A stretch of 64,000 nucleotides of DNA. It comes from Muribaculaceae bacterium (GTDB taxonomy: Bacteria > Bacteroidota > Bacteroidia > Bacteroidales > Muribaculaceae). Shown one piece after another: positions 6,771 to 17,935 of the stretch (the stretch's first letter is position 1; each line of letters opens with the position of its first letter). Under the pieces are notes generated by a model. It was not told where the DNA came from. It was given only the letters and a program-made list of their open reading frames with translations, and did not search any database. The stretch lies in contig JAFYYG010000050.1 of the NCBI GenBank assembly GCA_017557625.1, positions 62,001 through 126,000 of the forward strand, in the 5' to 3' direction. The translations under genes were made by a program, and so were the position numbers.

Positions 6771-7181
6771 ATGAAAGTCGTTAGAATTATATTATTAATT
6801 GCTCTAGTTGGAGTGGTTATAAGTTTGAAAGGCTATAAAGGCTTCAGTAGTATTTCACAGCAAAACAGCACAGTTTCTTACAATACTATACGTCAAAACA
6901 AAATGAAGTCGGAAATCAGCCGTCTAGTTAGTGATATTGATAAGAGGGGAAGGAATATTCAATTTGACCTGGACCATCTTAACAAAATGCTTGACGATCC
7001 AAATTGTGACCAAAATAAGATCAAAAGAGAAAAGCAGGTTTTAATTCAAGAGTTAATGTCTTATATAGACATGCTTAATGAGCTGAAAAATAAAAAAGGC
7101 ACAAAAGATGTTGTCAAAGAATGTGATGAGCGAATAAAGGACGCCAACAGGATGTTAAAAGAGATAAGAAGACTGAGTTAA
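6771..7181 (+). CDS. Small membrane-anchored coiled-coil protein
   Basis: I do not recognise this 136-residue protein. Residues 3-19 are a hydrophobic segment (VVRIILLIALVGVVISL), either an uncleaved anchor or a signal peptide. The rest is highly charged and predicted helical, with heptad-like spacing of Leu/Ile from about residue 45 to 134 (EISRLVSDIDK, LNKMLDDPN, LIQELMSYIDMLNEL), which suggests a coiled coil outside the cytoplasm. The coding region is AT-rich compared with neighbouring genes, and no clear TAnnTTTG box is seen upstream. It converges with the large dockerin-bearing gene. No function is proposed. Confidence 0.7.
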   Translation: MKVVRIILLIALVGVVISLKGYKGFSSISQQNSTVSYNTIRQNKMKSEISRLVSDIDKRGRNIQFDLDHLNKMLDDPNCDQNKIKREKQVLIQELMSYIDMLNELKNKKGTKDVVKECDERIKDANRMLKEIRRLS

Positions 7182-7211
7182 CTTACATGCAAGTCATCTC
7201 ATGATTTGTGG

Positions 7212-7251
7212 CAAAAAAATCAATGGCGGGGCCGTGGTGACCTCGCCATTG
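7212..7251 (-). terminator. Intrinsic terminator for the dockerin/CBM-like gene
   Basis: The stem CAATGGCG/CGCCATTG is followed on the minus strand by A then a run of seven T. It lies 90 bases past the stop at 7343. Confidence 0.8.
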
Positions 7252-7342
7252 TGGTGTGACTAATAAATAGATAATTAATCTTTTAACTGTGATTAATAAA
7301 TAAAAATTAGTTTGTTAAAAGCATTAATTATTGTGCAAATGA

Positions 7343-9655
7343 TTAGTTTGCGGGAGTAATGGTTGCTGTGTACTCACCTGGGCAAACGAGGGTGAGAACC
7401 ACATTGTAGGTGCCAGCCTCTACGGTGATATTTTCACCATTGATTACGAGGTTGTTGAGAGCACCGCCAAAGTTGATGTCCCAGCCATTGTTTGCGCGGA
7501 ACTTGATTTGACCTGCAGTGAGTGTAACCTGGCCTTCCCAAGCGCCAGTCTCGGCGTTGTAAGTGAGAGGAGCCTCGGTAGCCCAATCGGGATTTACTGC
7601 ATCGCCAATTACACCCATGCTGGTGATGTCGGTAACGCTGTAAGTCATGTTGCCGATGTTGGCGTTAACATAAACGAAGCCGTTGGCCTGGATGTTGGCG
7701 CCACCACTTATAAGAGTGCCGTTAGAGCCACCCCAGTTGGTAGCCCAGCTGCCCTGATTCTTTTGAATCTTGAACTCGCCAGTAGCGTTGATGAAGCCGT
7801 AGTAGTTGTTAGCGTCCTTTACCGAAGCAAGCTTGCCGCCATTGCCACTCCAGCCGTCGGCTGTACCAGCAATGTAAACATAGTCGTACTCAGCGGTTGG
7901 ATCAACAATTGGCTCCTGACCATCGGTAGTGATGGTGTAGGTGAGGTTCTCAACATCGATGGTGATGTCGAGGTAAGTGCAGTTGTAGTTGGCTGGGATG
8001 CAGAATGCACCTTGGTTGCCCTGAACGAGATTTCCGCTCAATGCGCTCTCACCGTCGGTGGCAGCGCTTAAGAAGTCACCACTCCAGAAGTCGGCGAGCT
8101 CATAGTTACCCTCGGAAGCAATCTTGAACCAGAAGTCACCGCTCACGTTGTCAACGTGGAGGGTGTAAACATTCTCGTTGGTAGCATCCTGAACGAAAGG
8201 ATAGCTCTTGTCGCTGGTCGACCAACCGTTGGGGGTGCCAATGAGGTACCAGCCGTCGCCGGCAGGCTGTTGTGGAGTGAACTCGCCAGTGATAGTGAGC
8301 TTCATGTTCTCAAGATCAAGGCTCAAGTTGAATGTACCTGGAGCCATCTGGATAGCCTGATAGTTCTCGGCAGTCAGAGGAATCTCAGTGTTGAGCAGTT
8401 CCTCTGTCACGAGGTAGTTGGCATCACCCTGAGCACCGAAGCGGTAGCTTGCGATGCCATCCCAATCATCAGCATTCTCAGCGAGCATGGTGGTGAAGCC
8501 AAAGTAGCTGTAACCACTCTCTTTGGTAGTGATAGCGGCAGTAAAGATCTTACCGTCCTCGCTAGTCATCTGAACGCCAACACTGGGATCCCAGCTGTTG
8601 CCGTTAACCTCGCCAAGGATGTAAACATTCTCTGGTATAAGAGGCATAGTTGGAGTAACTGTCAGTGTCATAGCCTCTAGATTAACTTCGAGAAGATATT
8701 TTCCTTCTGCAATCTTGAAGGCCTGAGGATTCTCGGCAGTGAGATTCAATGGAGTTTCAAACAGTTCGCCAGCAATTAATAAGCCATCGCTCTCAGCTCC
8801 AAAGCGCTGGTCGGCAATAGCATCCCAATCATTATTGTTTTCAGCAAGAGCCTTGGTAAAACTGAAGTAGCTGTAACCGTCGTTCTCGCCGGCAAAATCT
8901 ACTAAAGCAGTGTACATTTTGACTCCTTCAAATTCCGAGTATTCCATCTCCACGCCAGTAGCAGCGCCCCAAGTGTTGCCGTTAGCCTGGCCAAGGATGT
9001 AAACATTGTTGTTTTCAACAGGAATCTCGCCGCCGATTGTCAGTGTCAGGTTCTCAAGATCAACAGTGAGGGTGTACTCTCCAGCTGGAATCTTGTAGGC
9101 CTGAGGATTCTCGGTAGTGAGAGGCAGCGGAGTGTTGAGGGTCTCGTTGGTAACAAGGAAATCGCCTTCGCTCACAGCACCAAAGCGCTGGTCGGCGATA
9201 GCATCCCAATCTTCATTGTTCTCAGCAAGAGCCTTGGTGAAGCTGAAGTAGCTGTAGCCCTCGTTCTCACCAGCGAAGGTTGCGTTAAGGGTGTAGGTTT
9301 TACCATCATTGGTGGTCATCTGCACACCAGTGGCAGCGCCCCAAGTGTTGCCGTTTACCTCACCCAGAACGTAAACATTGTCATACTCAGCAGGAGCGAC
9401 GCCGAGCAAGATGTCATAGATATAAGTGACATCGGAAGCGGTAATGTAACCGTCGCCGTTAACGTCGGCTGTGGTCTGGTAGTCATAGTTTACACCAAGC
9501 AAAATGTCATAAACTGAAGTGACATCGGCCGAAGTGACGAAGCCGTCACCATTCACATCGCCCTTCACCGCAGCATTGCTGTAGTGAGAGATTGCGAAAA
9601 TCCCTGCTAAAGCAAGAACTGCCGCAAACAATGATTTCAGTAACTTTTTGTTCAT
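7343..9655 (-). CDS. Secreted protein: N-terminal dockerin plus tandem SusE/F-like modules
   Basis: This secreted protein of 770 residues is probably a carbohydrate-binding surface or extracellular protein. Signal peptide: about residues 1-28. Residues 31-90 hold two dockerin type I-like calcium-loop repeats, GDVNGDGFVTSADVTSVYDI and DVNGDGYITASDVTYIYDI. Three modules of about 117 residues follow, each starting N-VY-LG--NGN-W and containing YSYF-FT-xLAEN-xDWD-IA--RFGA; modules 1 and 2 are especially alike. Further modules beginning GWYLIGTPNGWS and YVYIAGTADGWS, and a last one with IKFRANNGWDINFGG, resemble SusE/SusF starch-binding domains. No catalytic domain is visible. The near-identical modules suggest recent duplication. 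It has its own promoter and terminator. Confidence 0.82.
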   Translation of the reverse strand: MNKKLLKSLFAAVLALAGIFAISHYSNAAVKGDVNGDGFVTSADVTSVYDILLGVNYDYQTTADVNGDGYITASDVTYIYDILLGVAPAEYDNVYVLGEVNGNTWGAATGVQMTTNDGKTYTLNATFAGENEGYSYFSFTKALAENNEDWDAIADQRFGAVSEGDFLVTNETLNTPLPLTTENPQAYKIPAGEYTLTVDLENLTLTIGGEIPVENNNVYILGQANGNTWGAATGVEMEYSEFEGVKMYTALVDFAGENDGYSYFSFTKALAENNNDWDAIADQRFGAESDGLLIAGELFETPLNLTAENPQAFKIAEGKYLLEVNLEAMTLTVTPTMPLIPENVYILGEVNGNSWDPSVGVQMTSEDGKIFTAAITTKESGYSYFGFTTMLAENADDWDGIASYRFGAQGDANYLVTEELLNTEIPLTAENYQAIQMAPGTFNLSLDLENMKLTITGEFTPQQPAGDGWYLIGTPNGWSTSDKSYPFVQDATNENVYTLHVDNVSGDFWFKIASEGNYELADFWSGDFLSAATDGESALSGNLVQGNQGAFCIPANYNCTYLDITIDVENLTYTITTDGQEPIVDPTAEYDYVYIAGTADGWSGNGGKLASVKDANNYYGFINATGEFKIQKNQGSWATNWGGSNGTLISGGANIQANGFVYVNANIGNMTYSVTDITSMGVIGDAVNPDWATEAPLTYNAETGAWEGQVTLTAGQIKFRANNGWDINFGGALNNLVINGENITVEAGTYNVVLTLVCPGEYTATITPAN

Positions 9656-11510: not shown

Positions 11511-11544
11511 AAAAGTCCTCAAAGGGACTTAACCTTTTGAGGAC
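11511..11544 (-). terminator. Intrinsic terminator downstream of the 203-residue membrane protein
   Basis: A strong hairpin (GTCCTC and AAAGG pairing with CCTTT and GAGGAC, one bulge) followed by a T run on the minus strand. It starts 14 bases past the stop at 11558. Confidence 0.8.
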
Positions 11545-11557
11545 ACATATTAATTTA

Positions 11558-12169
11558 TTAAGCATAAACCGACTGGAAATATTGAACAAGCCATACTATC
11601 TTATCTATAACCCACGAGATTATGAACCAATAGAATGCACCAACGAATATCGCAAATCGCAGGTAGATGTTCAGTATCTCAAGAGCGTTTGGCTTCACTA
11701 CACCATCTATGGCATAATACTTTCTGAAACCAAAGAATGGGAAACCAAAGTTAAACTCCCAGTCGCACATTTCGGCATTATAGCATCCTAATGGGATGAT
11801 AGGAATATAGAAGATGGTTAAGAATTGGTATCTTATATCCTTACCACCAAAGCTTCGATAAGCACGAAACATTGTTGTTCCTATTCCAAAGAATGTTCCA
11901 AGCAGTGGTGAGGCATAATCCATTCTGTTAATGAATCGACCACTGTAGTTCATGGGAACGAAATGGTTGAAGGCGCACATCAGCACAAAAGTGACGATGC
12001 ATGAGTACTTTAATGTGTCGCTTGGATAGTTGTAGTAAGCAACGCATAGCGAAGCAATGATAAGCACCTCTATCAAGCATACTGCCCATGAGGCAAGGAA
12101 ACGTTCTCTCTCGCCGTATGAATAAACATCATAACGACCGTTTTGTGTTATAGTCAAATAGTTGCTCAT
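11558..12169 (-). CDS. Uncharacterised multi-pass membrane protein
   Basis: I do not recognise this 203-residue protein. It has at least four hydrophobic segments: about residues 28-46 (WAVCLIEVLIIASLCVAYY), 54-72 (YSCIVTFVLMCAFNHFVPM), a weaker pair near 88-130, and 165-195 (NIYLRFAIFVGAFYWFIIS). Between the second and last there are many aromatic residues (FGFPFFGFRKYYA). No signal peptide or catalytic motif stands out. The gene is preceded on its own strand by a long inverted repeat (12185-12350) and has a strong terminator downstream. It is an inner-membrane protein of unknown role. Confidence 0.65.
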   Translation of the reverse strand: MSNYLTITQNGRYDVYSYGERERFLASWAVCLIEVLIIASLCVAYYNYPSDTLKYSCIVTFVLMCAFNHFVPMNYSGRFINRMDYASPLLGTFFGIGTTMFRAYRSFGGKDIRYQFLTIFYIPIIPLGCYNAEMCDWEFNFGFPFFGFRKYYAIDGVVKPNALEILNIYLRFAIFVGAFYWFIISWVIDKIVWLVQYFQSVYA

Positions 12170-12184
12170 AGTTGTAATGTTTTA

Positions 12185-12350
12185 AGTAACTATTCAGCGA
12201 TTTTGTTTTTTACTCGCATTATCATCAAACAAACTCAACAAAGAGGGACAAATTCAACAAAAAAATCTAGTATTCTAAAATATTTTCTTGTTGTTTTTGT
12301 CTGGTTTTGTTCTTTTTGTTTGATAATGATGACATCGCTGAATAGTTACT
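12185..12350. repeat. Long inverted repeat, MITE-like or extended hairpin
   Basis: The ends are a perfect 17-bp inverted repeat (agtaactattcagcgat at 12185-12201 and its complement at 12334-12350). Inside them a further pair of similar arms continues (ATTATCATCAAACAAA-like on the left, inverted TTTGTTTGATAATGAT on the right). It sits between two minus-strand genes and contains no gene. Confidence 0.65.
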
Positions 12351-12390
12351 GTATTAATTTGGTTTGTTAAAAAAAATGTTCTTGTCATTG

Positions 12391-12642
12391 TCACCAGCTC
12401 CACTTGCTTTTGTGGCTGCATCGCTCACATTCCATCCATGCCTCGATGTTGCTGGTTCCTAGCACACTTTTCATGTCGTGGCTGTACATGTTTCCGCCAC
12501 ATTTGCCGCATTTCTTGGTGGTTTGCGATACCACGCACTTGCCGCAAGAGTCTTCCTCGCATTTATACACCGTGTCGGCAGCAAATGCTGCTAAAGCCAC
12601 ACACACAGCCAACAAAACACTCAGTAATATTTTCTCTTTCAT
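12391..12642 (-). CDS. Small secreted cysteine-rich protein
   Basis: This 83-residue exported protein is of unknown function. A signal peptide covers about residues 1-21 (LLSVLLAVCVALAAFA). The mature part has seven Cys residues in CxxC-like spacing: YKCEEDSCGKCV, KKCGKCGGNM and MECERCSHK. The second and third pairs resemble a zinc-ribbon, unusual for an exported protein, so they may instead form disulfides or bind metal outside the cytoplasm. There is no close neighbour on the same strand except the membrane protein beyond the inverted repeat. It is a plausible real gene because signal peptide and paired Cys motifs occur together. Confidence 0.65.
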   Translation of the reverse strand: MKEKILLSVLLAVCVALAAFAADTVYKCEEDSCGKCVVSQTTKKCGKCGGNMYSHDMKSVLGTSNIEAWMECERCSHKSKWSW

Positions 12643-12933
12643 AAAATTGAAGTTTTAATAAAAAAGGACAACATATCCTTTCTTCTATATTAACAAAGAC
12701 GGCATGAGGTAATCAGGAGGAAGTGTTAAGTGATAAGTTTTAAGTGTTAAGTAGAACCGTTGCGCGGTTGTGTCGCTCCGCTGGTTTTATCGCTCATAAT
12801 ACTTGTTGATTTTGCCGTTGCGCTCGTTGTGTTGCTACGCAAACTCTCTGACCTCTTGTTTTCTTATTTTCTCGTCACCTTGTCCTTTAAAAATAGAAAA
12901 ATAATACTTTTGTGTATTTTTTACGCAAAATTC

Positions 12934-12964
12934 TTGGAAAATTGAAAAATGTGTTGTAACTTTG
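12934..12964 (+). promoter_or_regulatory. Promoter of the ADP-ribose/RNA-repair-like operon
   Basis: TAACTTTG at 12957-12964 matches the Bacteroidota -7 box, with a TTG at 12934-12936 spaced 20 bases upstream as the -33 element. The ATG of the first gene follows 39 bases later. The rest of the 12643-13003 gap holds short GTTAAGTGTTAAGT-type word repeats (12721-12755) and nothing else recognised. Confidence 0.75.
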
Positions 12965-13003
12965 CAGAAAAATAATATTTATACAACTAATAAAATTTGA
13001 TTT

Positions 13004-14860
13004 ATGTATAACAGAGAATACACACCCGAGAGAATAATTGAACTGAAATCCAATGAGATTTTTGTGTTTGGCAGCAACCTTGCCGGCTCACATGGCGGCG
13101 GGGCGGCAAGTCTCGCCTACAATCGCTTTGGTGCGGTGTGGGGGCAGGGAGTAGGCCTGCAAGGGCAGAGCTATGCTATCCCCACCATGCAAGGCGGTGT
13201 TGAAACCATCAAACCCTATGTGGACCAATTCATTGAGTTTGCTTCCTCGCACCCTGAACTCAAGTTCTTTGTGACGCGCATAGGCTGCGGAATAGCTGGT
13301 TTCAAAATTGAGGAGATCGCGCCGCTTTTTGAGAATGCAATTGACATACCTAATGTCATCTTGCCCAAGGATTTTGTGGAAGTGATGCAACGCCAAATAA
13401 ATGACACAAATCAAAATGTCCACACTTGGGACTCTGAAAAAGACTTTCTTAAAGAGTATCGCGTTTTGATGGAAAAAGTGAAGAGAGGAGTACCTAATGC
13501 TTATTCTCTTGTGAAGAAACTTCGAATAAAAGAGTTCCGCAACACTATTGATATTGTGAACCAAGGCTATTATGTGACCGAGAGCGGAGTGGAATATCGC
13601 TTTCCCAGCGATGCAGACATGACGCGCAACACTGTATTTTATAAAGACGAGGTTCACCTTGCCGACAGTCCAAAAAATGACGAGCCTACGATAGTCGAGG
13701 TAAGAAATATTGATTGCCTGTATGCTGGCGTGGAACTCAAAGAGCAAGGCTACAACCCTGCCGTGTTAAACATGGCAAGCCGTGGAAATCCAGGTGGAGG
13801 AGTGATTTCTGGCGATGGAGCACAGGAAGAGACACTGTTTCGCCGTACCAACCTGTTCCGCTCGCTTTACCAGTTTGCGCCTTATGCAGCGCAGTATCAC
13901 CTCACGCGCTCACGTCACCAATACCCGTTAGACTGGAACTTTGGCGGTATATATACCCCCGATGCCATCTACTTCAGAGAGAGTGAGAAAAAGGGATATG
14001 CCTTGCTTGAGAACCCCGTTAGTCTCTCGTTCATTGCGGTTGCCGGCTTAAAGGATCCAGGCCTAACGGCCGATGGCATGATTGCCGACCACCTTGTGGG
14101 GTCTGTCAAAAACAAGATTCGCACAATCTTCCGCATTGGCCTCCTGCATGGTCATGACGCGTTGGTGCTCGGTGCATTGGGGTGTGGAGCGTTCCGCAAT
14201 CCGCCACGCCATGTCGCACTGCTCTTCCATGAGGTGATGGATGAACCTGAGTTCAAAAATCGGTACCGTAAAATAGTGTTTGCCATCCTTGATGACCATA
14301 ATGCCCACAGAAGTCATAATCCAGAAGGCAATTTCAAGCCTTTTGCCGAGGAGTTTGCCGGCATGGACAAACCTCAGCCATCTCCTGATGTGATTGAAGC
14401 GCTGATGATGTGGAAGATGGGTGCCGGCGATTCGGAAAAACGCTTCAATGGAGAAGATCCCATGCCTTCCAAAAAGGAGGTGGCGACAAAAGACAGTTGG
14501 GACAATATGCCTATGCCCGATATGCACGTCATAATTCCAATGGATGAAACCATCACGAGTGAGGCTATGCGCATTGTGGAGCGTGGCCACATTCCTCATG
14601 GGATGGGCGACCACTGGTTTATGTATTGTGAGGACAACACCATACGATATTATCGCAGTTGGTCGGGAATCTGCATCTATGTAGCCAAATATGAAGACGA
14701 TGGCACAGAATGTCGAATCACCGAACTCATGGTAAATCGTGATCCAGACCAATATGGCAGCACCGACAATGACCATGACAAGGCATTGTTTATGGCTCTG
14801 CTCACCGAGGAATACGGCGGTGATGCGAGGGGGTATTGGAAACAGGTGCATTGTAATTAA
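13004..14860 (+). CDS. Macro-like domain / poly(ADP-ribose) glycohydrolase fusion protein
   Basis: This 618-residue cytoplasmic protein is predicted to bind and remove ADP-ribose. Residues 16-130 form a compact macro-like domain of the A1S_2505 type (IFVFGSNLAGSHGGGAASLA, then FVTRIGCGIAGF). Residues about 150-440 match the bacterial PARG family (TIGR02452/DUF2263): NMASRGNPGGGVISGDGAQEE contains the PARG signature, with GGG at 264-266 and the catalytic Glu pair at 275-276, and VLGALGCGAFRNPP follows. Residues 441-520 are a linker. The last 100 residues, from MPDMHVIIPMDE, form a separate domain with many aromatic residues (DHWFMYCEDNTIRYYRSWSG) that I cannot name. It is first in a four-gene operon; the next gene starts 15 bases later. 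The substrate could be protein or RNA; context favours RNA. Confidence 0.87.
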   Translation: MYNREYTPERIIELKSNEIFVFGSNLAGSHGGGAASLAYNRFGAVWGQGVGLQGQSYAIPTMQGGVETIKPYVDQFIEFASSHPELKFFVTRIGCGIAGFKIEEIAPLFENAIDIPNVILPKDFVEVMQRQINDTNQNVHTWDSEKDFLKEYRVLMEKVKRGVPNAYSLVKKLRIKEFRNTIDIVNQGYYVTESGVEYRFPSDADMTRNTVFYKDEVHLADSPKNDEPTIVEVRNIDCLYAGVELKEQGYNPAVLNMASRGNPGGGVISGDGAQEETLFRRTNLFRSLYQFAPYAAQYHLTRSRHQYPLDWNFGGIYTPDAIYFRESEKKGYALLENPVSLSFIAVAGLKDPGLTADGMIADHLVGSVKNKIRTIFRIGLLHGHDALVLGALGCGAFRNPPRHVALLFHEVMDEPEFKNRYRKIVFAILDDHNAHRSHNPEGNFKPFAEEFAGMDKPQPSPDVIEALMMWKMGAGDSEKRFNGEDPMPSKKEVATKDSWDNMPMPDMHVIIPMDETITSEAMRIVERGHIPHGMGDHWFMYCEDNTIRYYRSWSGICIYVAKYEDDGTECRITELMVNRDPDQYGSTDNDHDKALFMALLTEEYGGDARGYWKQVHCN

Positions 14861-14874
14861 CAATAAAGGTACAA

Positions 14875-16275
14875 ATGACTCAGGACACATATAAAGAAAT
14901 AACAAAATATCTTGGTGGACTTATCAAAGGCACCGAGTGGGAAGGACACGTCTATGCCGTAGGTGGATGCGTGCGTGATGAAATCATGGGCAGCGAGATC
15001 AAGGATATTGATTTGTGCGTAAGTCTGCCCTCGGGAGGAATACGCTTCGCACAGTGGCTGCGTGAAAACGGTCACACTCTCAAGGGTGTTGCTGTCTATC
15101 CCAACTACGGCACCGCGATGCTGCATCTGAAGGCTTTCCCTGATGTAGAGCTGGAGTTTGTGCAGACTCGCAAGGAGAAATATATTGACCACTCCTGCCG
15201 CAACCCTGTGACGGCATTCGGCACCATAGAGGACGACTGCATGCGTCGCGATCTTACTATCAACGCGCTTTACAGCAACGTGTCAACTGGTGAAATAGTT
15301 GACATCACAGGGCGAGGGGTGGACGACATCAAGAACCATGTGATACGCACTCCCAACGACCCCGATGTCATCTACGATGATGACCCGCTGCGCATTTTGC
15401 GTTGCATACGTTTTGCCAGCCGTTACGGGTGGGAGATAGAGCAGGACACCATGGATGGCATGGTGCGCAATGTTCACAGGCTTGACATAATCAGCAAAGA
15501 GCGAGTGAAGGACGAGCTCGACAAGATGCTCACCTGCCAGCATCCGGTTATGGCAATGGAACTGCTGCGCACAACAGGAGCTATGCATTATGTCATCCCG
15601 GAGCTGGAGCAGACCTACAACATGGAGCAGAATGAGTATCACTTCGGCACTGTGTGGGAACACACTTTAGCGGTTATCAAACATTTAAAGAGCGACCGAT
15701 TGGAACTGCGTATGGCTGCGCTGCTGCATGACATCGGTAAGATTCGTAAACGCACTATGGAGGATGGCAAGGTACATTTTTTGGAGCACGAACTGGCAAG
15801 TTCCGACATGGTTGACGAGATTTTGCGTGCTCTCAAGTACAGCAACGAGTTTATCGATGAAGTGGCATTCCTGGTGCGGTATCACATGATTTGCAAGAGA
15901 TGGGGCGACGAGTGCGAGCATTTTAAGATAAAGAGACTGCGCAAACTGCAATATCTGTGCGACACAGAAGAACGCTTCGATGACCTTATGCTGATTATTG
16001 ATGCCGACAACAATAGCCACTCCGCCGACCGATGCATGCCTCGTCAAGTTGAGATTATAAAGCAACGCACCGAGGAGATGAAGGCCGAGGGCTCGGCAAT
16101 GTTTGGCTATAAGCTGCCTCTCACCGGCAAGGATGTTATGGAAATCAAAGGCCTCCAGCCAGGTCCGCAAGTGAAAGAATGCCTGGACTATCTGATGAAG
16201 TTGGCTTTTGTCAACCCTCTCAGAGACAAAGACGAATTTATTGTTCATCTCAAAGGCTATAGACTGAAAAAATGA
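14875..16275 (+). CDS. tRNA nucleotidyltransferase/poly(A) polymerase-like protein with HD domain
   Basis: This 466-residue protein is related to class II CCA-adding enzymes, which rebuild the tRNA 3' CCA end. The nucleotidyltransferase head has GGCVRD at 30-35, the metal-binding D44-x-D46 (KDIDLCVS) and the RRDLTINAL motif around 124-132, all intact. The RNA-binding part includes DDPLRILRCIRFASR. An HD phosphohydrolase domain follows with H263 and H285-D286 (ALLHDIGKI). In E. coli CCA enzyme the HD domain has phosphatase and 2',3'-cyclic phosphodiesterase activity. From family memory this copy looks divergent from the usual Bacteroidales housekeeping enzyme, so it may be a dedicated paralogue. 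Its TGA overlaps the next ATG by 4 bases. Confidence 0.87.
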   Translation: MTQDTYKEITKYLGGLIKGTEWEGHVYAVGGCVRDEIMGSEIKDIDLCVSLPSGGIRFAQWLRENGHTLKGVAVYPNYGTAMLHLKAFPDVELEFVQTRKEKYIDHSCRNPVTAFGTIEDDCMRRDLTINALYSNVSTGEIVDITGRGVDDIKNHVIRTPNDPDVIYDDDPLRILRCIRFASRYGWEIEQDTMDGMVRNVHRLDIISKERVKDELDKMLTCQHPVMAMELLRTTGAMHYVIPELEQTYNMEQNEYHFGTVWEHTLAVIKHLKSDRLELRMAALLHDIGKIRKRTMEDGKVHFLEHELASSDMVDEILRALKYSNEFIDEVAFLVRYHMICKRWGDECEHFKIKRLRKLQYLCDTEERFDDLMLIIDADNNSHSADRCMPRQVEIIKQRTEEMKAEGSAMFGYKLPLTGKDVMEIKGLQPGPQVKECLDYLMKLAFVNPLRDKDEFIVHLKGYRLKK

Positions 16276-16874
16276 ACAAACCAAATCGACATCCCAACGA
16301 TCTTATTGGTATCAAGGAAGATTTTGAGAAGATGATAGCAAACAAGAAACCCATCAAAAACAGCTATCAGGTGACTAGTCAAATCTATGCCGGCGAATAT
16401 CCGCGAGACAAGGACGAAGAACTCAGCATAGCAAAGCTTAAACAGTTTGAGGATTTCGGTGTCACGCATTTCGTGGACTTGACCGAGGATGGTGAGTTGG
16501 CGCCATATCACAACATGCTATATCCTGGCGCATCACACGTGCGATTTCCCATTAGGGATGTGTCGGTGCCTAAGAGTATGGACGATGTGCGAGGTTTGGT
16601 TAAAAGCATCTGTGAAATAGTCAACAACAATCCTGACGCGAAAGTATATATTCACTGTTGGGGAGGAGTGGGCAGGACTGGAGTTATTGTAGGATGTCTC
16701 TTGTCCGAGTTATATCATCAGAGTTTTGATGAAACCATGGCAAAGTTGGAAAACATCTTCTTGGCTTGCCCGAAGTCGGCCTACAGAAAAACACCCGAGA
16801 CGCAAGAGCAACGCCAATTCATCTCAAAGTATGTGAGAGAAAATATACAACAACATAATAACATAGAAATATGA
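16272..16874 (+). CDS. Dual-specificity/tyrosine phosphatase family protein
   Basis: This 200-residue cytoplasmic cysteine phosphatase has the signature HCWGGVGRTG, with nucleophile Cys129 and phosphate-binding Arg135 (HCx5R). An Asp at 96 in FPIRDVSVP is a plausible general acid. The N-terminal segment with QIYAGEYP and FVDLTEDGE matches the dual-specificity fold, whose members act on phosphotyrosine, phosphoserine, phosphoinositides or, in the PIR1/baculovirus group, RNA 5'-triphosphate. There is no signal peptide or membrane segment. It overlaps by 4 bases both the nucleotidyltransferase upstream and the ADP-ribosylglycohydrolase downstream, so all three are translationally coupled. The real substrate cannot be read from the sequence; an RNA end or an ADP-ribose phosphate is possible in this context. 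Confidence 0.88.
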   Translation: MNKPNRHPNDLIGIKEDFEKMIANKKPIKNSYQVTSQIYAGEYPRDKDEELSIAKLKQFEDFGVTHFVDLTEDGELAPYHNMLYPGASHVRFPIRDVSVPKSMDDVRGLVKSICEIVNNNPDAKVYIHCWGGVGRTGVIVGCLLSELYHQSFDETMAKLENIFLACPKSAYRKTPETQEQRQFISKYVRENIQQHNNIEI

Positions 16875-17935
16875 ACACGTTACAAGACAGAATCAGAGGC
16901 TCACTCGTTGGAGGTGCCATTGGCGACGCATTGGGATATCCAGTGGAGTTTATATACTCTTTGGGCAAAATACAGGCAAAATATGGAGTGCGTGGCATCA
17001 CGCGACTTGACACTCACCAATTTTGGCTGGGCGATGATAAACAAAGCGAAAAGGCAGTAGTCTCGGACGACACGCAGATGACGCTGTTCACGGCAAACGG
17101 TTTGCTTAATGCCAAACGCTTGAATATAGAGATGAAATACGGCATCTGTCGCGCCTACATAGAATGGTATCTTACCCAAGTGGGCAAGAAATCAAATAAG
17201 TTCAACGACTGCTGGATTAGCAGTGTGCCTGAATTGAATGCACGCCGTGCGCCAGGCAACACTTGCATGTCGGCTCTGCATGCTATATATAATGGCGGTG
17301 AGACTTATAACAACAGCAAGGGATGCGGTGGCGTGATGCGCGTTGCGCCAATACCCCTGTTTGCGGCGGTTGATTCAAGGATGGATGTGACAGAAGCAGC
17401 AAAACTTGCCGGTGATGCCGCCGAAATCACCCACCAGCATCCGCTCGGTTACATTCCTGCGGCATTGATGGCACACATCATCTATCGTCTGGCACTCGAT
17501 GAACAGCCCACCCGATTGAGCTTAAAGCAATATATTATTGAAGGATTGGAGGCGCTGGAAAAGTTGTATCCCGAGAACAATAAAGATGTTCAGGAGATGC
17601 AGAAGCTTGTGATGAAGGCTATTAGATGTTCCGAAAATGATTGCCCCAACCATGATAACATCATCTCACTTGGAGAGGGGTGGGTAGGAGATGAGGCATT
17701 GGCAATAGCGCTATATTGCTGCCTGCGGCACTTCGACAGCTTTGAGAATGCCCTTATCGCTTCGGTGAATCATGGCGGCGACAGCGACAGCACAGGTGCC
17801 GTGACGGGCAACATCCTCGGTGCGGCAGTGGGCTATGATGCCATCCCTCAGTTCTTCAAGGATGAGTTGGAGATGCACGACCTCATCCTCCATATCGCCG
17901 ACGACCTGTGGTGTGGTGAAGTGACCAAGATGTAA
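16871..17935 (+). CDS. ADP-ribosylglycohydrolase (DraG/ARH family)
   Basis: This 354-residue cytoplasmic enzyme is expected to cleave ADP-ribose from a modified target or to hydrolyse a related ADP-ribose derivative. Both magnesium-binding motifs are intact: SDDTQM at 65-70 near the N-terminus and HGGDSDSTGAVTG starting at 301 near the C-terminus. The family opening LVGGAIGDALGYPVEF is also present. The all-helical length fits DraG/ARH proteins. It ends the operon and overlaps the phosphatase gene by 4 bases. With the macro/PARG fusion at the head, the operon has two unrelated folds for removing ADP-ribose, which suggests different linkages or successive steps. Family assignment is secure; the target is unknown. 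Confidence 0.93.
   Translation: MNTLQDRIRGSLVGGAIGDALGYPVEFIYSLGKIQAKYGVRGITRLDTHQFWLGDDKQSEKAVVSDDTQMTLFTANGLLNAKRLNIEMKYGICRAYIEWYLTQVGKKSNKFNDCWISSVPELNARRAPGNTCMSALHAIYNGGETYNNSKGCGGVMRVAPIPLFAAVDSRMDVTEAAKLAGDAAEITHQHPLGYIPAALMAHIIYRLALDEQPTRLSLKQYIIEGLEALEKLYPENNKDVQEMQKLVMKAIRCSENDCPNHDNIISLGEGWVGDEALAIALYCCLRHFDSFENALIASVNHGGDSDSTGAVTGNILGAAVGYDAIPQFFKDELEMHDLILHIADDLWCGEVTKM

What the first reader, a model, noticed from the sequence alone, without database searches (positions are those of the whole stretch)
13004..17935. Four-gene operon combining two ADP-ribose hydrolase folds with a nucleotidyltransferase/HD protein and a phosphatase: candidate RNA or ADP-ribose repair system
Seen: one promoter, then macro-like/PARG fusion, CCA-type nucleotidyltransferase with intact HD domain, HCx5R phosphatase and DraG-type hydrolase, with a 15-base gap and then two ATGA overlaps. 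All catalytic motifs are intact. Known: PARG and DraG families remove ADP-ribose; macrodomains bind ADP-ribose or its phosphates; the HD part of E. coli CCA enzyme has 2',3'-cyclic phosphodiesterase and phosphatase activities; some dual-specificity phosphatases act on RNA 5' ends; ADP-ribosylation of RNA ends is documented. Inference: the operon reverses ADP-ribosylation of tRNA or RNA ends and rebuilds the 3' end, perhaps after attack by an ADP-ribosylating or tRNA-cleaving toxin. Such operons are not, to my knowledge, standard in Bacteroidales housekeeping gene sets.
Basis: partly seen in the sequence, partly recalled or inferred. Interest (0 to 1): 0.88.

Follow-up and report, generated by a model that had tools for sequence, protein, structure and literature searches.

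The report
ADP-ribose operon with sole CCA enzyme
A bacterium carries a four-gene operon in which genes that remove ADP-ribose marks share one promoter region with a tRNA-end-building enzyme of a kind that relatives keep with RNA-repair genes, and that enzyme seems to be the only one of its sort left in this draft genome because the normal housekeeping gene has lost its catalytic part.

Summary
The four genes are real and intact: A1S_2505 + microbial PARG + an unnamed C-domain; a CCA-type nucleotidyltransferase with HD domain; a DSP/PTP phosphatase; an ARH/DraG hydrolase. Genes 1, 3 and 4 are a Bacteroidaceae form of the published ARG-centric ADP-ribose-reversal systems (PMC9503650). The CCA gene is the odd one: it is beside ARH in 1 of 49 ARH loci. 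Genes 1-3 lie between the promoter stretch and the start codon of an ARH gene that relatives have at the same place without them. In 5 of the 7 other loci of this CCA subtype from the window's genus or its nearest contigs, WYL, RtcB, RlaP or Ro60 genes are close; Lak megaphages carry the subtype too. Unexpectedly, this genome's housekeeping cca (behind pheS and nth) has lost its nucleotidyltransferase head but keeps HD and Ogt domains, so the operon gene is the only CCA-type head found in the 88%-complete assembly, although 36 of 41 tRNA genes seen lack a 3' CCA. The RNA-repair idea is partly supported; a conserved four-gene system is not.

The parts
12889..12967 (+). Promoter stretch with TAACTTTG box (12957-12964), matching the promoter stretch of the ARH gene in relatives
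   Evidence: 80% identical over 81 bp to the radA-ARH intergenic stretch of G319 (L218); alignable to that of G295 (L177), where the box reads TATTTTTG. TAnnTTTG as the Bacteroidota -7 box is recalled
13004..14860 (+). Gene 1: A1S_2505 N-domain (about 1-130), microbial PARG (180-434), C-domain without family (about 451-618)
14875..16275 (+). Gene 2: CCA-type nucleotidyltransferase with RNA-binding and HD domains, of a subtype linked to RNA-repair genes; only PolyA_pol head found in this genome
16272..16874 (+). Gene 3: DSP/PTP-type (rhodanese-phosphatase) phosphatase, HCx5R
   Evidence: joined or close to ARH in 8 of 49 ARH loci, window included
16871..17935 (+). Gene 4: ARH/DraG ADP-ribosylglycohydrolase, the resident gene of this chromosomal locus
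   Evidence: same place in G295 and G319 (radA on one side, 191-aa gene on the other) and in G272 (191-aa gene; contig ends on the other side)
12968..16854 (.). Stretch absent from the relatives: genes 1-3 between the ARH promoter stretch and the ARH start
   Evidence: blastn homology to L218 stops at 12967 and resumes at 16855

Best explanation
It is an ADP-ribose-reversal operon of the published ARG-centric kind that has captured an RNA-repair-type CCA-adding enzyme. ARH and PARG take ADP-ribose (or short chains) off modified macromolecules, the A1S_2505 domain and the phosphatase process ADP-ribose or phosphorylated products, and gene 2 rebuilds or maintains tRNA 3' CCA ends, its HD domain cleaning phosphorylated 3' ends. 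In this lineage genes 1-3 were inserted behind the promoter of a resident ARH gene, and the housekeeping cca lost its nucleotidyltransferase head, leaving gene 2 as the cell's only CCA-adding enzyme. SHOWN by sequence: domain content, the extra block behind the conserved promoter stretch, the repair-gene linkage of orthologues, the headless housekeeping gene, no other CCA-type head found in the assembly. INFERRED: enzymatic activities, essentiality, co-transcription, the order of events, and that ADP-ribose removal and CCA repair act on the same damaged RNA (the weakest step, about 0.35).
For: Module: and PMC9503650 section 3.8. Insertion. RNA-repair subtype: L210 (G333) WYL | Ro60-RtcB-CCA-RlaP; also L211, L111, L212, L033. 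Tree: window gene with L032, L110 and the WYL-RtcB-linked L033 at 98/94 and 99/98, apart from housekeeping enzymes by a branch of about 2.3. Low dN/dS of gene 2: 0.047 to L032 and 0.10 to L110, with high, near-saturated dS. Sole head: one PF01743 match in G000; the full housekeeping protein as query finds only the headless gene and gene 2; headless ORF 486 aa against 640 in L214, PF01743 absent, RNAbd just below cut-off, HD and both Ogt domains kept, pheS and nth intact beside it; by score and place 92 of the 101 genus genomes searched (G000 counted in the 101) have a housekeeping head (rows). Need for CCA addition: 5 of 41 tRNA genes in about 356 kb of this genome encode CCA.
Against: The CCA-ADP-ribose linkage is seen in one genome only (1 of 49 ARH loci), so it may be a chance insertion without functional coupling. 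The two closest orthologue loci (L032, L110) have neither repair nor ADP-ribose genes within four ORFs. The assembly is a draft, 88.46% complete, so a second head could lie in a gap: 7 of 101 genus drafts (62-83% complete) show no head at all. 39 of the 41 tRNAs examined are in or next to one array (38 in L238, one in L282), only two elsewhere. No ADP-ribosyltransferase was found among the operon proteins.
Confidence: 0.6

Rival explanations
1. Passive co-location: gene 2 was carried into the ARH operon by chance and simply does (now sole) housekeeping CCA addition; it has no functional link to ADP-ribose removal.
For: Linkage seen in this genome only; a three-gene block behind a ready promoter; loss of the housekeeping head explains retention without any coupling.
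Against: Tight packing (14-base gap, ATGA overlaps); gene 2 belongs to a repair-linked subtype rather than the housekeeping type.
Confidence: 0.45
2. One reading: the four proteins act in sequence on ADP-ribosylated or cleaved tRNA/RNA ends, a dedicated RNA-repair system.
For: Repair-gene linkage of orthologues; the own genome has RtcB and WYL beside a 38-tRNA array, and a Ro60 gene elsewhere; PMC7824862 describes CCA enzymes of jumbo phages as tRNA-end restoring enzymes in RNA repair (passages).
Against: Not conserved as a unit; RtcB, WYL and Ro60 of this genome are on other contigs; no substrate evidence.
Confidence: 0.3
3. The HD part of gene 2 is what matters in the operon: a phosphatase or cyclic phosphodiesterase working on ADP-ribose phosphates, as HD phosphatases occur in ARG-centric systems.
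For: PMC9503650 section 3.8 lists HD phosphatases in such systems; HD domain matched and its motif kept in L032 and L033.
Against: The nucleotidyltransferase motifs are conserved in all four proteins aligned and the head is the only one found in the genome; the headless housekeeping protein already supplies an HD domain.
Confidence: 0.1
4. The headless housekeeping cca is an assembly or binning artefact and the species has a normal cca.
For: Draft of 76 contigs, 88.46% complete.
Against: The ORF is open through the junction, pheS and nth are intact and adjacent, and the stretch beside the junction has itself diverged (47% identity to L214 against 78% in the HD part), as expected of an old deletion and not of a misjoin.
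Confidence: 0.12

Closest known systems
ARG-centric host systems (Iyer and others 2022, PMC9503650, section 3.8)
   Same: ARH with a rhodanese/PTP phosphatase and a macro/PARG-type accessory; relatives in this family have NrtR-like Nudix, NADAR, Sir2 or vWA neighbours at some loci.
   Different: No Nudix or WYL regulator in the window operon; a CCA-adding enzyme, which the paper does not mention (0 occurrences of 'CCA' in its main text); Bacteroidota are not among the lineages named in that section; at 2 of 49 ARH loci here a Sir2 gene is close, unlike the paper's template.
RtcB/Ro60/RlaP RNA-repair operons (PMC7790460, PMC7824862)
   Same: Orthologues of gene 2 in congeners lie in WYL-Ro60-RtcB-CCA-RlaP type operons.
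   Different: In the window genome RtcB, WYL and Ro60 are on other contigs, and no RlaP was found with the L210 query.
CCA enzymes of huge phages, incl. Prevotella Lak phages (PMC7162821, PMC7824862)
   Same: Lak-A1, Lak-B4 and a 673-kb IMG/VR contig group together (95/88) inside the subtype, which is split from housekeeping enzymes at 99/98.
   Different: All three phage proteins tested (L296, L298, L299) match the head but not the HD family; the enzyme of the 735-kb phage (L297) falls on the housekeeping side.
Housekeeping Bacteroidaceae Cca (behind pheS and nth, fused to Ogt in this genus)
   Same: Class II head, RNA-binding, HD.
   Different: About 35-42% identical to gene 2 in the rows; no Ogt domain in gene 2; deep split in the tree.

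Membership tests
ARG-centric ADP-ribose-reversal system | ARG (ADP-ribosylglycohydrolase) domain | tested here: met
   PF03747 E 6.5e-67
ARG-centric ADP-ribose-reversal system | Coupled phosphatase, most often of the rhodanese-phosphatase superfamily (a little over 55% of systems) | tested here: met
   Gene 3, PTP-SAK 1.6e-13, ATGA overlap with ARH
ARG-centric ADP-ribose-reversal system | No coupled ADP-ribosyltransferase or sirtuin | tested here: met
   No such Pfam match among the four operon proteins and the three flanking ORFs scanned; ORFs further off were not scanned with Pfam
ARG-centric ADP-ribose-reversal system | Optional: Nudix or WYL regulator (over 42% of systems) | tested here: not met
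   None among the proteins scanned or by marker blastp around the operon; optional, so it does not exclude membership; Nudix present at 12 of 49 ARH loci
ARG-centric ADP-ribose-reversal system | Removes ADP-ribose from macromolecules | not testable with these tools
   biochemistry needed
CCA-adding enzyme (class II) | PolyA_pol head, RNA-binding domain and motifs | tested here: met
CCA-adding enzyme (class II) | Scores as CCA enzyme rather than poly(A) polymerase | tested here: inconclusive
   TIGR02692 244 bits against pcnB 120.6, both below cut-off
CCA-adding enzyme (class II) | Adds C, C and A to tRNA | not testable with these tools
   assay needed
RtcB/Ro60/RlaP RNA-repair operon | RNA ligase or repair partner in the operon | tested here: not met
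   none within four ORFs in the window; present at 5 of the 7 other genus-level loci
Macrodomain (gene 1 N-domain) | Macro fold | tested here: inconclusive
   E 0.55 to 5e3b; model mean pLDDT 46

The most novel reading that the evidence does not exclude
An essential step of tRNA maturation has been handed from the housekeeping gene to an ADP-ribose-conflict operon: the repair-type CCA enzyme under the ARH promoter is the cell's only one, so tRNA 3' ends are built by an enzyme co-expressed with ADP-ribose removers, making tRNA supply responsive to (or resistant against) ADP-ribosylating or CCA-end-attacking effectors, while the headless Cca-Ogt protein survives as an HD end-cleaning partner acting in trans.
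Probability: 0.25. Interest if true: 0.85.

Novelty: new variant of a known kind. Interest (0 to 1): 0.6.

Why it matters
CCA addition is normally a housekeeping function. A genome in which that gene has lost its catalytic head while a repair-type paralogue sits in an ADP-ribose operon is a natural test of whether ADP-ribose reversal and tRNA 3'-end repair work together, and it gives a simple genetic handle: gene 2 should be essential here and dispensable in congeners such as G146, G180, G333 and G300, which keep both heads. It also extends ARG-centric systems to Bacteroidaceae, with fusions such as ARH-PTP-ARH and ARH-A1S.

Tried and rejected
A listed defence system: PADLOC gives no match for genes 1, 3 and 4 and only weak Cas-HD type matches for gene 2. 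Poly(A) polymerase: lower NCBIfam score than the CCA model, both below cut-off. Macro fold of the gene 1 N-domain: the hhalign comparison A3 against A4 is an artefact, because I had put a full-length protein that contains the N-domain (L129) into A4; not used. Structure of gene 1: model too poor, so no fold search was run. G300's low housekeeping-head score goes with masked letters in that gene and is not read as decay. Codon-rate values have high or saturated dS, and that script stopped with an error at its last comparison; only values printed before are quoted. ARH relatives in IMG/VR: none confirmed. Gene 1 on plasmids: 25 records, none covering 80% of the query; the 20 listed match one domain each. 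Neighbour strings: L135, L136, L145, L147, L148 (ADP-ribose set) and L166, L169 (CCA set) had no anchor; the output was cut in the middle. The count of 47 CCA loci is of 51 put in: L166 and L169 (no ORF hit) and L171 and L172 (237 and 239 bits) fell out, and L053 (short contig) was not put in; several loci are cut short by contig ends. The ARH set of 49 was gathered by matches to gene 4 and partly to genes 1 and 3. G336 also shows only the repair-type head but is 82% complete, and I could not locate its pheS-nth locus with the searches left. Literature: searches (3 of 3 papers listed; 9 of 10; 5 of 5; 20 of 61; 17 of 17; 15 of 15; 10 of 22; 15 of 122; 5 of 5); none of the titles and abstract starts listed reports a CCA enzyme in an ADP-ribosylglycohydrolase operon or a headless Cca. 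The 2016 RNA-repair survey that I looked up by DOI is not held, so such a report may exist.
Full report
What is there. The window holds four intact ORFs on the + strand at 13004-17935 with a 14-base gap and two ATGA overlaps. Gene 1 is A1S_2505_Nterm + TIGR02452/microbial PARG + a C-domain of about 168 residues with no Pfam match and no NCBIfam match in five members; gene 2 a CCA-type nucleotidyltransferase with RNA-binding and HD domains; gene 3 a DSP/PTP phosphatase; gene 4 an ARH/DraG hydrolase.

Genes 1, 3 and 4 are one known kind of module. In 49 ARH loci fetched from the family (window included), an A1S domain is fused or within three same-strand ORFs in 18, an NrtR-like Nudix in 12, a gene-3-type phosphatase in 8, a Sir2 gene in 2. 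The loci were gathered by matches to gene 4 and partly to genes 1 and 3, so these shares are not unbiased; across 297 family genomes ARH matches occur in 41, the phosphatase in 7 and gene 1, mostly its N-domain alone, in 183. Fusions occur: ARH-PTP-ARH (L222, L225), PTP-ARH (L143), ARH-A1S-C (L138). PMC9503650 section 3.8 (read whole) describes ARG-centric systems of ARG + rhodanese-phosphatase with Nudix or WYL regulators and accreted Macro and NADAR domains, and proposes that they undo viral ADP-ribosylation. The window operon fits the core but has no regulator gene.

Gene 2 does not belong to the usual set. It is beside ARH in 1 of 49 ARH loci. Of 51 loci of its subtype put in, 47 passed the cut, and among these only the window has the operon's ADP-ribose genes within four ORFs; L128 has another ARH-family gene (Pfam E 1e-33) four ORFs away on the other strand. 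The subtype, at 263 bits or more to gene 2, is in 47 of 297 family genomes, the own one included, whereas the other matches listed reach at most 234 bits. The tree separates the two kinds by a branch of 2.3 and puts the window gene with L032, L110 and L033 (98/94).

The subtype is linked to RNA repair at genus level. The genus search finds it in 6 of 101 genomes; with the near contigs L032 and L033 this gives seven loci besides the window. In 5 of them (L033, L111, L210, L211, L212) WYL, RtcB, RlaP or Ro60 genes lie within four ORFs; L032 and L110 have none; of the 39 counted loci from other genera 0 have them and 4 have ClpB. L210 reads WYL, then Ro60-RtcB-CCA-RlaP, the four partners confirmed by Pfam. 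The eight genus-level rows are not one clade; they lie around the base of the subtype tree, and shared descent means that the counts are not independent. Prevotella Lak phages carry the subtype at 37.6-38.7% identity over nearly the whole protein; two of them plus a 673-kb IMG/VR contig fall inside the subtype, while the enzyme of a 735-kb phage (L297) falls on the housekeeping side. The three phage proteins inside the subtype keep the head but have no HD match.

How the operon arose. In G319 (L218) and G295 (L177) the same locus is radA (named by eye), promoter stretch, ARH (an ARH-ARH fusion in G295), a 191-aa gene. Homology of the window to L218 runs through radA to 11514, reappears at 12889-12967 (80% over 81 bp, the stretch with TAACTTTG), then only at 16855, 16 bases before the ARH start. 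So genes 1-3 lie between the ARH promoter stretch and the ARH gene, and a second insert (11515-12888, ORFs of 203 and 83 aa) lies between radA and the promoter. In G180 and G146, which have both gene 1 and gene 2 relatives, these are on different contigs (the G146 gene 1 match has one stop counted inside).

The housekeeping enzyme has lost its head. In the congener loci L213, L214 and L216 cca follows pheS and nth; the L214 protein is fused to a complete Ogt. In the window's genome pheS and nth are intact, but the cca ORF (L237:4857-6317) is 486 aa against 640 in L214, with the PolyA_pol head gone, the RNA-binding part just below cut-off, and HD and both Ogt domains kept; the frame is open. 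Near the junction identity to L214 is 47%, in the HD part 78%. The genome has one PF01743 match, gene 2, and a search with the full housekeeping protein finds no other head. In one search, 94 of 101 genus genomes have a head (48 of 48 of those at least 90% complete and at most 5% contaminated); by score and place 92 have a housekeeping one, G000 and G336 (82% complete) show only the repair type, G146, G180, G333 and G300 have both, and 7 drafts of 62-83% completeness show none. That last number shows that heads do get lost in gaps, so the direct sight of the headless gene, not the count, carries the argument. Of 41 tRNA genes in about 356 kb of this genome 5 encode CCA; the two outside the array region do not, nor do 7 tRNAs in other congener loci (in the rest of the family 3 of 9 do). 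CCA addition is therefore needed, and gene 2 is the best candidate for it.

Reading. Most likely the operon is an ADP-ribose-reversal module that captured an RNA-repair CCA enzyme, which is now the only CCA enzyme. Whether the two activities meet on one substrate is unknown. Attacks on tRNA 3' ends exist (toxSAS pyrophosphorylation of the CCA end, PMC11559606, start of abstract in the listing; MenT, PMC11541572, listing), and ADP-ribosylation beyond proteins is reviewed in PMC8883491 (start of abstract in the listing), so coupling is plausible, not shown. PMC7824862, PMC7790460 and PMC7162821 were seen as passages. HD activities of E. coli Cca are recalled, from no call.

Verdict. Observation confirmed; interpretation partly supported; new variant of a known kind; interest 0.6, chiefly for the apparent transfer of CCA addition to an ADP-ribose operon.

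Noticed in passing
L238:63-5766 (G000 contig 49, about 46.06-51.77 kb): An array of 38 tRNA genes in 5.7 kb directly beside RtcB (6793-7965, -) and a WYL regulator (8389-9405, +): possibly a damage-inducible tRNA reserve.
   Followed up: partly
L237:4857-6317: Headless housekeeping Cca-Ogt protein, 486 aa, open frame, HD and Ogt domains kept.
   Followed up: yes
L214:8298-10220 (also L213, L216): Housekeeping Cca of this genus is fused to a complete Ogt (Pfam on L214) and overlaps nth by four bases.
   Followed up: partly
L210:842-8310; L211:5476-11903: WYL | Ro60-RtcB-CCA-RlaP RNA-repair operon; in L211 an AAA ATPase stands in the place of Ro60.
   Followed up: partly
L296, L298, L299: Lak megaphages and a 673-kb viral contig carry the same CCA subtype; head kept, no HD match.
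   Followed up: partly
window 14354-14857 and L227:6491-6970, L228:5955-6545, L133, L134: C-domain of gene 1 with conserved W, H, RYYRSW and C residues and no family match; also stands alone or fused to A1S, in L133 and L227 beside NADAR and NrtR-like Nudix.
   Followed up: partly
L137:5767-8323: PARG gene next to a fusion of an ART-like domain with NADAR.
   Followed up: no
L035, L038, L118, L120: In other genera the same CCA subtype follows clpB (Pfam on L038), with a 4-base overlap in L038 and L120.
   Followed up: no
L032:9424-10545 and L133:3289-4386: Related proteins of about 370 aa without Pfam match follow the CCA gene in L032 and the A1S-C gene in L133.
   Followed up: no
window 11515-12888: Separate insert between radA and the ARH promoter stretch with ORFs of 203 and 83 aa of unknown function.
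   Followed up: no
L295:1119-1913: An ORF on the opposite strand splits a phage A1S_2505 gene; looks like a mobile endonuclease gene by eye only.
   Followed up: no
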